DNA of 64,000 bases from contig NZ_LNZA01000001.1 of assembly GCF_001468035.1 (NCBI RefSeq), positions 186,001-250,000 on the forward strand, read 5' to 3'. Shown piece after piece: positions 12,340-16,342 of this stretch; positions within the stretch are counted from its first letter, which is position 1; every line of letters begins with the position of its first letter. The translations under genes were made by a program, and so were the position numbers. A model generated the notes under the pieces. That model was not told the DNA's origin. It saw only the letters and a program-made list of their open reading frames with translations, and did not search any database. The stretch comes from Legionella tucsonensis (GTDB taxonomy: Bacteria > Pseudomonadota > Gammaproteobacteria > Legionellales > Legionellaceae).

Positions 12340-13233
12340 TTACTGTTCAAATTTTACAATATTTTTATTGTTCAAATCCTGCCATAACTTTTCTGCAACC
12401 GGACCCCGGGCTGATTTTTGCAATCGTATTGCACCCATAGTAATTAATCGTCTATCAAAATGATTTCCTTGCAAGCACTGCAGTCGACCATCTGCTAATT
12501 CTTGGGTAATCATATGTAAAGGCAACCGCCCCCATCCAAGGCCTGCCATGATAATATCCTTCTTGGCCATAACATCGCTTACTGTCCAACGGCGCGCATG
12601 CTCAATAACTCCAAATGAAAAATCAGACTGCGATGAATCGCGCAGAATAACTTGCATGCATTCAGAAAGAGTGTCCAGATCGCCTAATTGTTTGCTGTAA
12701 TGTTGGATAAACTCAGGAGATGCTACTGCGATTAGGAACTCAGAGCGCAGCGGTATCACTTCAACTGCTTTCTTGGTGATCAAATTTTCGCTAATAATCA
12801 AGTCTGCTTGATTTCTTAATAATCGCTCGCACGCGCCGCCAAGCGATTCAGTTAGAAAATGAAATTGTGTATTAGGAAAACTGTAAATCCAATACCGTAA
12901 AAGTTTTTTCAAGCTTGATAAAGGAAAAAAAACATCGATAGCAATCGTAATATCGCTTTCCGCCTCTGACTGAAGTAGCTCTGCAAATTGGCTAATGTTC
13001 TTCCAATGCCCAATTAAAGACTGAGCACGTCGAAATAGTTTTTCTCCTTCTGCCGTTAAAACAGGTCGATAGTGGCTGCGATCAAACAATATCAAATTGA
13101 GCTGCTCTTCCAGCTTTTTTATTGATGAAGTGATTGCAGGCTGAGTTTTGAATAAGCTACGTGTTGCGGCGTTGAACCCACCGCATTCAACTACAACAAC
13201 AAAAACTCGCAGAGCATCAAAATCAATATCCAT
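12340..13233 (-). CDS. LysR-family transcriptional regulator, probable regulator of the isonitrile operon
   Basis: This 297-residue LysR regulator has an N-terminal winged HTH (residues 3-62: FDALRVFVVVVECGGFNAA, then TQPAITSSIKKLEEQLN) and a periplasmic-binding-protein-like effector domain from about residue 90. It is divergent from the pvcA-pvcB-P450 operon, the usual arrangement for a LysR gene that regulates its neighbour. A 20-bp palindrome lies 11 bp upstream of its start. The co-inducer cannot be predicted. Regulation of the operon is inferred from position only. Confidence 0.9.
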   Translation of the reverse strand: MDIDFDALRVFVVVVECGGFNAATRSLFKTQPAITSSIKKLEEQLNLILFDRSHYRPVLTAEGEKLFRRAQSLIGHWKNISQFAELLQSEAESDITIAIDVFFPLSSLKKLLRYWIYSFPNTQFHFLTESLGGACERLLRNQADLIISENLITKKAVEVIPLRSEFLIAVASPEFIQHYSKQLGDLDTLSECMQVILRDSSQSDFSFGVIEHARRWTVSDVMAKKDIIMAGLGWGRLPLHMITQELADGRLQCLQGNHFDRRLITMGAIRLQKSARGPVAEKLWQDLNNKNIVKFEQ

Positions 13234-13244
13234 AATTTTATATT

Positions 13245-13264
13245 ATTAAGTTTATTAAAACTTA
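13245..13264. promoter_or_regulatory. Palindromic operator candidate for the LysR regulator
   Basis: The perfect inverted repeat TTAAGTTT / AAACTTAA with a 4-nt centre lies just upstream of the LysR start codon, in the gap shared with the isonitrile operon. The near-symmetry extends a few AT base pairs on each side. LysR proteins typically bind interrupted palindromes of the T-N11-A type in such a position, so autoregulation and control of pvcA are plausible. Confidence 0.45.
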
Positions 13265-13431: not shown

Positions 13432-14364
13432 ATGTCAATGAGGTCCATTCAAGAGACAACAACTGCATTATTAGATTTATTACTCAATCAAAGACGGGTT
13501 AGTGAGTTAACTGAAAAACAGTGCTCTGGAATTTTATGTCCTGAATGCACTCGTCACCCGCAGCAAAAAATTCAACAAGCAGTCACTGAGCAAAGAATAC
13601 TTACTTTAATTCTTCCTGCCTTCCCAGCAAAATCGGCCAACAGGAAGAAAACGCTGTCAGAGAAACCTGATCGAGGTGAAATCATTGGCTTAAGCAATCT
13701 AAATCAACTCTGCCAAGCCATGCAGGAAGCTTATCCTGTAGGTGTAAAATTAATTATTTGCTCTGATGGTCGCGTATTTAATGATTTGGTTTTGGTAAAT
13801 GATCTGCATGTAGATGTGTACCAAAAAGGAATTCAACAAATCATTAGGGATTATCAACTAAACCATTTATCGACTTTTTCACTTGATGATGTGTACCCCT
13901 ATCATAACTATCAGATCATGCGCGAATCATTAATGATCGAATTTGGGCAATCTTTAAACGAATTAAAAAAAAACATAGTTAGCGAACAGAGTGCGCGGTA
14001 TCAATTTAATGGCATTCATCGTTTTATTGTTGAAGATCAACTTGCATTGAAGCCGGAACAAACGAAAAACAAAATACGTCAGGAAGCCAAACACATCGCT
14101 TATGAGGTAATCCGTCGATCGAATGCATGGTCAAAATTACTTGTACATTATTTTCCACAATCCGTACGTTTGTCGATTCACCCGCAGCCTTGTGGCTCAG
14201 AAAAAATAGGAATTCACTTTCTTCCTGTAGCAAATCGTTGGAGCACCCCCTGGCATAGTGTTTTACTTAAAAACGCGCAAGGATGGCAATTAGTAAAAAG
14301 AGAAGAAGCAGAGCGACTTGGGGCTCGATTAAATAATGATCATTATGTGTTGGAGGCATGCTAA
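13432..14364 (+). CDS. pvcA: Isonitrile synthase (PvcA/IsnA family)
   Basis: Enzymes of this family convert the amino group of an aromatic amino acid (Tyr or Trp) to an isonitrile, using ribulose-5-phosphate as carbon donor. The 310-residue length fits. Family hallmarks are PAFPAKSANRKK (62-73) and the block LIICSDGRVFNDLV (107-120), and a C-terminal region with CGSEKIGIHFLP. A good ribosome site (GGAGG) precedes the start. It is the first gene of a coupled three-gene operon with pvcB and a P450. The identity of the amino acid substrate is not visible from sequence. Confidence 0.92.
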   Translation: MSMRSIQETTTALLDLLLNQRRVSELTEKQCSGILCPECTRHPQQKIQQAVTEQRILTLILPAFPAKSANRKKTLSEKPDRGEIIGLSNLNQLCQAMQEAYPVGVKLIICSDGRVFNDLVLVNDLHVDVYQKGIQQIIRDYQLNHLSTFSLDDVYPYHNYQIMRESLMIEFGQSLNELKKNIVSEQSARYQFNGIHRFIVEDQLALKPEQTKNKIRQEAKHIAYEVIRRSNAWSKLLVHYFPQSVRLSIHPQPCGSEKIGIHFLPVANRWSTPWHSVLLKNAQGWQLVKREEAERLGARLNNDHYVLEAC

Positions 14365-15134
14365 TGAATAACTTAAAATTATTTAATCCGTATCTCATCC
14401 AAGCGGATACAAACACAAATTTGACTGCTTTACCGTTAAAAAAGCTTTTAGCTCAGGTAACTCATTATAAAATTGTCCTTTTGCGCGGCTTCAAACCTCT
14501 TGAGCGTGATGCGTTACTCAATTATTGCCAAAGCCAAGCACAATTGCTTTCCTGGGAGTTTGGGCCGGTAATGGAAATGAAAGTAGATAAGCAGCCTAAA
14601 AACTACTTATTTACTGAAGGAGATGTTCCTTTACACTGGGACGGAGCTTTCCATCGAGAACCTCGTTTTTTACTCTTTAATTGCTTGCAAGCACCTAAAA
14701 TTGGGAGCGGGGGCGAAACCGTATTTGTAAACACTGAAACGGTTTGGCATACCGCAAACGAATCGCAAAAAAATGAATGGCAACACTATTCTCTCTCATT
14801 TCATACTGAGAAGTTGGCTCATTATGGGGGTTCCATTACGCGTAACTTAATCAATATTCATCCGCATACAAAACAGGTTATTTTACGCTTTGCTGAACCT
14901 GTAGGGGAAGACTATTTAAATCCTGTACATGTCAAAATAATTGGTAAAAGTGAGGATGAATCAAATGCTATTTTATCCTCTTTAAGCCAAAGCATGCGGA
15001 TGCCTCAACACATCTACCAGCACGAATGGCAAAAAGGTGATTTATTGATTGCGGATAATTTTTCTCTCTTACATGGTCGTAATTCATTTCATCGCCATAG
15101 TCCAAGACATTTAAGAAGGATCCAAATACTATGA
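14364..15134 (+). CDS. pvcB: Fe(II)/2-oxoglutarate oxygenase PvcB/IsnB (TauD family)
   Basis: PvcB-type enzymes oxidise the isonitrile amino acid, usually with decarboxylation to a vinyl isonitrile or a related product. Counting from the ATG at 14364 the protein has 256 residues; the iron ligands are H91 and D93 in LHWDGAFHREP and H237 in SLLHGRNSFHRH, with R248 or R251 as the likely 2-oxoglutarate-binding Arg. The start at 14364 overlaps the pvcA stop by one base and lies 7 nt after GGAGG; an ATG at 14358 is too close to that site. It overlaps the P450 start by 4 bp. Confidence 0.9.
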   Translation: MNNLKLFNPYLIQADTNTNLTALPLKKLLAQVTHYKIVLLRGFKPLERDALLNYCQSQAQLLSWEFGPVMEMKVDKQPKNYLFTEGDVPLHWDGAFHREPRFLLFNCLQAPKIGSGGETVFVNTETVWHTANESQKNEWQHYSLSFHTEKLAHYGGSITRNLINIHPHTKQVILRFAEPVGEDYLNPVHVKIIGKSEDESNAILSSLSQSMRMPQHIYQHEWQKGDLLIADNFSLLHGRNSFHRHSPRHLRRIQIL

Positions 15135-16342
15135 AAGCCTATACGTTAATGCAGCTCAAACAAACAACAACTCCAGAACAATTCAGTCATCACTTACGGG
15201 AAATGGGGGAGCTATTCTGGTGGGATCCTGGGAAATTTTTTGTTATTACCTCCTATCAATTAGCCAAACAAGTGCTCACAAGCGAGGATTTCAGTTGCGA
15301 TCGCTCACCTTTTTTTATCTCCCGTATGCCCGAAATGAATGTGTCATTAATTACTGATTTTTTTAAAGTAGTCAGCCAAATGATGGTGATGAGTGATGCT
15401 CCAGAGCATACGGATCGTAGACGAATTTGTTATCATGGATTGAGTACTCACTGCCTCGAGCAGTTAAAACCATTGATTCAGCGAACTATTGCAAATTGCC
15501 TGACTGAATTTACTGAAAACCAACCTTTTGATTTTGTAAGCCAACTCGCGCAAAACATTCCCTCAGTAACACTTGCCGAATTATTTGCAATTCCGGATAG
15601 CGAGCGCAGTGATTTTTATCATTGGTCTAATAACATGACTCAGTTTTTTGGCGGCTCAACCAGTTATAAAGATGAAGATGGCATCAAGGTAAATCATAGC
15701 GCCCAACAATTATATAATTACTTTTCTGATCTCATGAGTCACCGCCGACTAAAGCCTGGAAAAGATTTTTTAAGTATCTTGTTGGAGCATCAAGCTTATT
15801 TTGGATTAACTGATGATGAAATCATTTCCCAGGCCATTATGATGTTGGTTGCAGGTCAGGTAACAACAACCGATCAACTATGTAATAATTTATTTATTTT
15901 GCTCAATGAACGAGGACTCTGGAAACAGATAAGAAATAATCTCGATGCTCTTGATGCTTATATTGAGGAATGCAACCGTCTTGATCCTGCAGTAACTTTT
16001 ATTTTTCGAGTAACTAAAAATGAAACCATGCTTGGTGAGCAACTGATTGAAAAAGGGAAAGTAATTTTCATATCAACACATGCAATTAATCGTGATCCGC
16101 ATTATTTTAATTATCCAGACACCATAACACCCGAGAAAAAGCAAACGCAGCATTTCAGTTACGGTTATGGGAGTCATTTTTGTCTTGGTGCAAAATTGGC
16201 GCGTCTTGAAATGCACCACATTTTTAAAGCTCTGTTGACACAATTCCCTTCTTTACATCTGGATGCAAGCAACCCTGCGCAAAGAAAACATCATAGTTTA
16301 TCTTTTTCAGGATTTGAGCATATGTATTTAAATGTGTATTAA
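15131..16342 (+). CDS. Cytochrome P450, likely tailoring enzyme of the isonitrile pathway
   Basis: This is a soluble bacterial class P450 of 403 residues. The I-helix oxygen-activation motif is AGQVTTT (241-247), the K-helix ExxR pair is E280/R283, and the haem thiolate is C351 in FSYGYGSHFCLG. It lacks a membrane anchor. The start overlaps the pvcB stop (ATGA), so the three proteins are almost certainly co-translated. The substrate is inferred to be the isonitrile product of PvcA and PvcB. No ferredoxin or reductase gene is next to it, so electrons must come from elsewhere. Confidence 0.92.
   Translation: MKAYTLMQLKQTTTPEQFSHHLREMGELFWWDPGKFFVITSYQLAKQVLTSEDFSCDRSPFFISRMPEMNVSLITDFFKVVSQMMVMSDAPEHTDRRRICYHGLSTHCLEQLKPLIQRTIANCLTEFTENQPFDFVSQLAQNIPSVTLAELFAIPDSERSDFYHWSNNMTQFFGGSTSYKDEDGIKVNHSAQQLYNYFSDLMSHRRLKPGKDFLSILLEHQAYFGLTDDEIISQAIMMLVAGQVTTTDQLCNNLFILLNERGLWKQIRNNLDALDAYIEECNRLDPAVTFIFRVTKNETMLGEQLIEKGKVIFISTHAINRDPHYFNYPDTITPEKKQTQHFSYGYGSHFCLGAKLARLEMHHIFKALLTQFPSLHLDASNPAQRKHHSLSFSGFEHMYLNVY

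What the first reader, a model, noticed from the sequence alone, without database searches (positions are those of the whole stretch)
12340..16342. Compact isonitrile synthase - oxygenase - P450 operon with its own LysR regulator
PvcA/IsnA, PvcB/IsnB and a P450 are joined by 1- and 4-bp overlaps, so they are made together. PvcA and PvcB families are known to form vinyl isonitriles from Tyr or Trp (for example paerucumarin- and rhabduscin-type pathways), with tailoring by other enzymes. The P450 as the third and last step, without glycosyltransferase or FAD oxygenase, suggests a product different from those. It could be a copper- or haem-binding small molecule made during host infection.
Basis: partly seen in the sequence, partly recalled or inferred. 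Interest (0 to 1): 0.75.

Follow-up and report, generated by a model that had tools for sequence, protein, structure and literature searches.

The report
P450-type isonitrile operon in Legionella
This Legionella genome carries a small set of three enzyme genes and their own switch that should make an unusual carbon-nitrogen (isonitrile) small molecule; the gene set was noted before, but its middle enzyme fits neither of the two known chemical classes and I found no report of its product.

Summary
In detail: divergent lysR and pvcA-pvcB-P450 at 12340-16342, with 1-nt and 4-nt overlaps, and the tested PvcA, PvcB and P450 signature residues kept. The gene set is not new: PMC5126622 (2016) says Legionella isnAB comes with a helix-turn-helix protein and a P450. 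Added here: (i) a close relative of this P450 (E<=1e-60) is in 23 of 143 genomes of the order and in 2 other sampled Gammaproteobacteria; in 25 of 25 it directly follows pvcA-pvcB. (ii) Another 23 of 143 carry a different cluster (FAD hydroxylase seen in 22); no genome has both. (iii) All 25 P450-linked PvcBs have Ala105-Phe106 and Ala188 (PIsnB numbering) and match neither full product signature, while 23 of 23 of the other kind match the vinyl-isonitrile one. (iv) The P450 lacks the I-helix acid in 25 of 25. (v) A 15-nt intergenic motif is kept in 22 of 22. Best reading: a self-contained aromatic isonitrile pathway finished by a P450; product unknown. Copper/haem binding and a role in infection are untested; passages on L. 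pneumophila pvcAB speak of iron regulation and biofilm.

The parts
12340..13233 (-). LysR-family regulator, divergent from the operon
   Evidence: HTH_1 63.1 bits, LysR_substrate 67.7 bits; orthologue divergent in 22 of 25 loci, window included
13234..13279 (.). AT-rich dyad (arms 13234-13253 and 13258-13277) with the motif ATATTATCAAnTTAT at 13265-13279; candidate LysR site and/or promoter element
   Evidence: motif identical in 22 of 22 loci
13327..13404 (.). REP-like inverted pair, a dispersed repeat and not an operon part
   Evidence: 31 half-sites with up to 3 mismatches in the genome, 0 for the reversed control
13432..14364 (+). PvcA/IsnA isonitrile synthase
   Evidence: DIT1_PvcA 246.2 bits; 3e59 E 6.5e-59; 47 invariant columns over 43 rows
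14364..15134 (+). PvcB/IsnB Fe(II)/2OG oxygenase of a distinct class (longest ORF from 14358)
   Evidence: TauD 119.6 bits; 7tcl E 3.9e-46; residues
15131..16342 (+). Cytochrome P450, last gene of the operon
   Evidence: p450 95.7 bits; ExxR and Cys loop 25 of 25, no I-helix acid 25 of 25

Best explanation
A self-contained, LysR-controlled three-enzyme pathway to an aromatic isonitrile. PvcA turns the amino group of an aromatic amino acid (Tyr most likely) into an isonitrile; the Fe/2OG enzyme PvcB oxidises or desaturates the side chain; the P450 makes the last oxidation on that intermediate, most likely ring hydroxylation or phenol coupling. Shown here: gene order, domain identity, kept residues, shared history of the three enzymes, a conserved intergenic motif. 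Inferred: control by this LysR, substrate, order of steps, P450 reaction, product and function.
For: Domains, and PDB relatives PvcA 3e59 (E 6.5e-59) and PIsnB 7tcl (E 3.9e-46). Iron ligands and substrate-anchoring residues kept in 50 of 50 PvcB rows. 47 invariant PvcA columns over 43 rows. The P450 follows pvcA-pvcB in 25 of 25 loci. Distances of the three proteins correlate at r 0.94-0.97 over the 25, no shuffle of 1000 as high. The 25 PvcAs form one group.
Against: No product is known. PvcB matches neither full product signature, so step two cannot be assigned. NCBIfam's tyrosine isonitrile synthase equivalog scores 215.3 against a cut-off of 600. The P450 has no functionally telling relative in the PDB. 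Correlated distances are expected of any genes inherited together. No terminator and no excess of sigma-70 sites were found. I saw no transporter or redox partner in the operon.
Confidence: 0.7

Rival explanations
1. The P450 stands in for the FAD hydroxylase of the other Legionella cluster: it hydroxylates the aromatic ring to a catechol, giving a metal-chelating isonitrile.
For: 23 of 143 genomes have the P450 cluster and 23 the other cluster (FAD hydroxylase seen in 22, the 23rd cut by a contig end), none both (PF01494 confirmed for one). pvcAB is called iron-regulated in L. pneumophila (PMC11705809, PMC5835138, passages).
Against: The PvcB classes differ too, so the two clusters may not feed the same intermediate. 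Exclusivity may only reflect descent (genus only: 0.001 by hypergeometric, not corrected for kinship). The P450 lacks the I-helix acid.
Confidence: 0.35
2. The P450 couples two isonitrile phenols, so the operon works like the fungal xanthocillin (XanB-XanG) and yeast dityrosine (Dit1-Dit2) pairs.
For: XanB is an isonitrile synthase-dioxygenase fusion and XanG a P450 proposed to dimerise its product (PMC5974471, passages): the same three activities as here. Loss of the I-helix acid (25 of 25) recalls the coupling P450 CYP121 (recalled, no call). The best NCBIfam P450 match is the cyclodipeptide-associated model, 152.9 bits, far below its cut-off of 500.
Against: Analogy only: no call links this P450 to XanG or Dit2; best PDB matches are PksS, BioI and other broad bacterial P450s. 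The XanG step is a proposal in the passages read.
Confidence: 0.3
3. The end product is not an isonitrile but an N-formyl or hydrated compound, as long held for yeast Dit1.
For: Dit1 gives its name to the same Pfam family and formyl tyrosine is named as its product (PMC7345447, title in listing).
Against: No isonitrile hydratase gene in the operon; PvcA is nearest 3e59 and 9dhm; a 2026 paper argues that the Dit1-type isonitrile is itself a stable product (PMC13005658, passage).
Confidence: 0.1
4. A pyoverdine maturation locus, as the Pfam name and some papers say.
For: PF05141 name; wording in PMC5126622 and PMC4256840.
Against: P. aeruginosa pvcABCD is reported to make paerucumarin (PMC3639982, abstract in listing).
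Confidence: 0.02

Closest known systems
Legionella isnAB cluster (Fig. 3L of PMC5126622, 2016; passages read)
   Same: isnA-isnB with an HTH protein and a P450; L. parisiensis, studied there, has this operon
   Different: No product or sequence-class analysis in the passages read; 'always associated' with a P450 does not hold over the wider sample, where 23 further genomes have a cluster without it
P. aeruginosa pvcABCD (paerucumarin)
   Same: PvcA and PvcB homologues
   Different: pvcC and pvcD there, a P450 here; PvcB has Leu107/Cys188 there, His/Ala here
Photorhabdus/Xenorhabdus isnAB with glycosyltransferase (rhabduscin; glycosyltransferase recalled)
   Same: IsnA and IsnB homologues
   Different: No glycosyltransferase here; PIsnB has Lys107/Asn188, this one His/Ala
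Fungal xan cluster, XanB + XanG (PMC5974471)
   Same: Isonitrile synthase, Fe/2OG oxygenase and P450 as the core
   Different: Fused XanB, more tailoring genes; P450 homology not tested
Second Legionellaceae cluster: LysR-pvcA-pvcB-FAD hydroxylase, ATP-grasp in 18 of 23
   Same: Same first two enzymes and a LysR
   Different: In the 16 genus loci with whole pvcA, PvcA 37-44% and PvcB 31-36% identical to the window's; vinyl-isonitrile signature in 23 of 23
Streptomyces plasmid isocyanide synthase beside a P450 (NZ_CP109039.1)
   Same: P450 gene adjacent to a PvcA homologue
   Different: No TauD-type gene annotated in the stretch shown; P450 27% identical to the window's and with Glu at the I-helix acid position

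Membership tests
PvcA/IsnA isonitrile synthase (PF05141) | Pfam domain over cut-off, near full length | tested here: met
   246.2 bits vs 26.4, profile 1-267 of 273
PvcA/IsnA isonitrile synthase (PF05141) | family-invariant residues kept | tested here: met
   47 columns invariant over 25 P450-kind, 16 other-kind and 2 PDB rows; which are catalytic is not known to me from a call
L-tyrosine isonitrile synthase equivalog (NF045653) | score over the curated cut-off | tested here: not met
   215.3 bits vs 600
PvcB/IsnB Fe(II)/2OG oxygenase | iron ligands and substrate-anchoring residues | tested here: met
   H101, D103, H250, R265, W74, G104 in 50 of 50 rows
PIsnB type (vinyl isonitrile) | Lys/Arg at 107 and Asn/His at 188 (PMC9467999) | tested here: not met
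   18 His, 6 Tyr, 1 Lys at 107 and Ala188 in 25 of 25; if the adjacent gap is shifted, Arg could sit at 107 in the window protein, Ala188 is unaffected
PvcB type (isocyanoacrylate) | Leu at 107 and Cys at 188 (PMC9467999) | tested here: not met
   0 of 25 at either position
Cytochrome P450 | Cys haem loop and ExxR | tested here: met
   25 of 25
P450 with the usual I-helix acid-alcohol pair | acid before the I-helix Thr | tested here: not met
   AGQ[VI][TS]TT in 25 of 25; the three PDB relatives aligned have Glu or Asp
XanB-XanG xanthocillin pathway | dimeric bis-isonitrile product | not testable with these tools
   needs chemistry
Paerucumarin or rhabduscin pathway | further genes (pvcC/pvcD, or glycosyltransferase) in the cluster | tested here: not met
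   window genes on both sides named by Pfam or by eye, none of these kinds
Legionella isnAB-HTH-P450 cluster of PMC5126622 | isnA, isnB, HTH protein, P450 together | tested here: met

The most novel reading that the evidence does not exclude
The P450-linked PvcB does a third kind of chemistry, or takes a larger substrate, than the two known PvcB classes (Met105 of the ring pocket replaced by Ala, one residue deleted, Ala188), and the acid-less P450 then couples two units, making these bacteria a source of a new bis-isonitrile or otherwise new isonitrile scaffold.
Probability: 0.25. Interest if true: 0.75.

Novelty: new variant of a known kind. Interest (0 to 1): 0.45.

Why it matters
Isonitriles bind transition metals and several are bioactive (PMC5974471, passages). 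A three-gene pathway with its own regulator, kept across part of the Legionellaceae and with a PvcB outside both known product classes, is a compact place to look for a new isonitrile scaffold and for what sets selectivity in this enzyme family. It also splits the Legionella 'pvcAB' of the literature into two kinds that do not occur together in the 143 genomes searched.

Tried and rejected
AlphaFold2 of the P450 from five sequences gave mean pLDDT 37, so no fold search was made. A profile of 21 of the 25 P450s against the PDB gave only a broad set of bacterial P450s. The inverted repeat 13327-13404 was first taken for an operator or attenuator; it is a dispersed repeat, although the exact 18-mer had looked unique. 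Terminator scan: 0 found, shuffles mean 2.5; sigma-70 scan: 6 found, shuffles mean 9.3. Plasmid records: one P450 match (Nostoc, 28.8%) and 13 PvcA records, of which I looked at five: none has this pvcA-pvcB-P450 order as far as annotated or seen by ORF listing; two of the five stretches carry no annotation. The one named-genome scan took a single protein as query and returned four close species. Paper searches for a Legionella isonitrile product, the locus tags or PvcA structures listed no paper whose title or abstract start reports a Legionella isonitrile; I read passages or sections of eight papers, and the library holds open-licence papers only (the 2007 isnA paper and the 2008 sessile-cell study were seen only as citations). 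Rows dropped: L058 (pvcA in two ORFs) from the PvcA alignment and tree; PvcA rows of the six further other-kind genomes (L114-L119) were not aligned; the residue comparison of PvcB was first 17 and then, all 23 of the other kind. Type 3 and 4 PF05141 genes were not followed to their chemistry.
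Full report
What is there. The window lies in a 3.36-Mb genome of 12 contigs. Its PvcA is 94% identical to that of Legionella anisa, 93% to L. bozemanae, 91% to L. parisiensis and 82% to Fluoribacter (Legionella) gormanii. A LysR gene (12340-13233, minus) is divergent from pvcA (13432-14364), pvcB (start best placed at 14364, end 15134) and a P450 gene (15131-16342). The overlaps are 1 nt (TAATG, with GGAGG 7 nt before that ATG) and 4 nt (ATGA). The neighbours are housekeeping-like: ubiE, ubiJ, ubiB and probable tat genes on one side (named by eye), msrAB and a lytic transglycosylase on the other.

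Conservation. Of 45 genomes of the genus, 31 have a PF05141 match. Eleven, the window included, have LysR-pvcA-pvcB-P450 between ubiB and msrAB; a twelfth (G044, L041) has pvcA-pvcB-P450 without these neighbours and with another LysR. Of 143 genomes of the order, 23 have a P450 match at E<=1e-60, a threshold I set; the eleven outside the genus all have LysR-pvcA-pvcB-P450, without the ubi and msrAB genes within the 16 kb taken. Of 369 genomes sampled evenly from the class, two outside the family have the P450 (E<=1e-50; G210 and G411, 57% and 55% identity), again directly after pvcA-pvcB; these two and the window's genome are also the only 3 of the 369 with any PF05141 match. So the P450 follows pvcA-pvcB in 25 of 25 loci. 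The window's type of LysR is divergent in 22; the other three have a different LysR gene, divergent from pvcA in L041 and L106 and convergent behind the P450 in L105. Pairwise distances of the three enzymes correlate at r 0.968 (PvcA-PvcB), 0.961 (PvcA-P450) and 0.940 (PvcB-P450), with 0 of 1000 shuffles as high. In a PvcA tree of 53 rows the 25 stand apart from the other Legionellaceae kinds with support 98/94 on a branch that also holds a Hymenobacter plasmid protein; the 25 alone have 95/86. L041, L105 and L106 are long branches, which the program flags.

Two kinds. In the family search 51 of 143 genomes have a PF05141 match. 23 are the P450 kind. Another 23 (17 in the genus, 6 outside) have a different cluster: LysR, pvcA, pvcB, and an FAD hydroxylase, seen in 22, the 23rd (L052) being cut by its contig end; an ATP-grasp gene is seen in 18 and an MFS gene like that of L035 in 4 (Pfam names tested on L035 only). 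One has pvcA in two ORFs (G016, L058) and one a pvcA-pvcB fusion (G107, L116). No genome has both kinds. The last five have only other PF05141 matches: G008, G030 and G123 a half-domain protein, G097 a lone distant PvcA, G045 a fragment. For the genus the chance of no overlap between 12 and 17 of 45 is 0.001, but related genomes are not independent. The statement in PMC5126622 (passages) that in Legionella an HTH protein and a P450 are always associated with isnAB, made on 15 genomes, therefore describes one of two kinds.

Active sites. PMC9467999 (passages, and sections 7 and 12 read) gives the iron ligands His101, Asp103, His250, the anchors Arg265, Gly104 and Trp74, and a rule: Lys/Arg107 with Asn/His188 in vinyl-isonitrile formers, Leu107 with Cys188 in isocyanoacrylate formers. 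Its authors add that single swaps did not change the product, so the rule is a marker and not the cause. The ligands and anchors are present in 50 of 50 rows: 25 of the P450 kind, 23 of the other, 2 PDB. All 25 P450-linked PvcBs have Ala105, Phe106, then His (18), Tyr (6) or Lys (1, L041), a one-residue deletion beside it, and Ala188. The column of the deletion is arguable, so a basic residue at 107 is possible in some, the window protein (His-Arg) among them; Ala188 is not affected. All 23 PvcBs of the other kind have Met-Tyr-Arg107 and Asn188, the vinyl-isonitrile signature. Tyr106 and Met105 line the ring pocket in PIsnB, so Ala105 may widen it: inference. PvcA: 47 columns are invariant over 43 rows, and five positions differ uniformly in the 25 (Thr77, Gly85, Phe199, His203, Arg223 in the numbering printed for 3e59). 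P450: ExxR and the Cys loop are kept in 25 of 25; the I helix reads AGQ[VI][TS]TT, without the acid seen in the three PDB relatives aligned. The likeness to CYP121 in this point is recalled, not tested. A Streptomyces plasmid has a P450 next to an isocyanide synthase, but that P450 is 27% identical and has the acid.

Regulation. The gap between lysR and pvcA holds an AT-rich dyad; its part ATATTATCAAnTTAT is identical in 22 of 22 loci with this LysR, more than the rest of the stretch compared. The 21-mer around it occurs in the window only there and, with three mismatches, as its inverted mate. It is a candidate LysR site or promoter element. A GC-rich inverted repeat in the same gap is a dispersed element with 31 half-sites in the genome.

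Literature, passages read: PMC5126622 (isnAB + HTH + P450; no product given there), PMC4256840 (lpp0236-lpp0237 among proteins specific to the human-pathogenic species compared), PMC5338858 (CsrA binds lpp0236 RNA), PMC11705809 and PMC5835138 (pvcAB iron-regulated, induced in biofilm), PMC5974471 (XanB-XanG and Dit1-Dit2 models), PMC13005658 (Legionella only in a reference title). The searches listed no paper whose title or abstract start reports a Legionella isonitrile; the library holds open-licence papers only.

Interpretation. Shown: a conserved, co-inherited isonitrile synthase, Fe/2OG oxygenase and P450 with a regulator gene. Inferred: PvcA makes an aromatic isonitrile, PvcB oxidises it in a way its sequence class does not reveal, and the P450 completes the molecule. 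Ring hydroxylation (in the place of the FAD enzyme) and phenol coupling (as proposed for XanG) are about equally likely; exclusive pairing leans to the first, the missing acid and the distinct PvcB to the second.

Verdict. Real, with a gene order in print since 2016, and unusual in its PvcB class. New variant of a known kind; interest 0.45.

Noticed in passing
L031-L038, L040, L042, L043, L045-L047, L049, L052, L058, L114-L119: A second Legionellaceae isonitrile cluster (LysR-pvcA-pvcB-FAD hydroxylase, ATP-grasp in 18 of 23, MFS in 4) with the vinyl-isonitrile PvcB signature, in no genome with the P450 kind.
   Followed up: partly
L040:751-5756, L038:622-5534, L042:553-5487, L062:5729-10867: A third, lone PvcA (27-29% identical to the window's, about 145-150 bits) divergent from a gene with adenylation, carrier and condensation domains in four genomes, 16-21 kb from the second cluster; G010 and G097 have the lone PvcA without that gene nearby. 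Recalls fungal isonitrile synthase-NRPS enzymes.
   Followed up: partly
L059:9234-10832, L063:9046-10626; 12 genomes: Open frames of 509-575 aa with only the N-terminal half of PF05141. In L063 the next gene is an FMN-dependent dehydrogenase (Pfam), in L059 a similar one by eye; both have a 485-486-aa protein without any Pfam match nearby.
   Followed up: partly
window 13327-13404: REP-like inverted pair; 31 half-sites (up to 3 mismatches) in the genome, many in inverted pairs about 50 nt apart.
   Followed up: partly
L058:9549-10615 (G016): pvcA of the second cluster lies in two ORFs while its neighbours are open.
   Followed up: no
L116:7469-9382 (G107): A 637-aa PvcA-PvcB fusion, like the two-domain ICS-DOX proteins named for fungi and Vibrio in PMC5974471.
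   Followed up: partly
L112:6541-8927 (Streptomyces plasmid): An isocyanide synthase gene next to a P450, an asparagine synthase-like gene, an MFS and an iron ABC transporter, without a TauD gene annotated in the stretch.
   Followed up: partly
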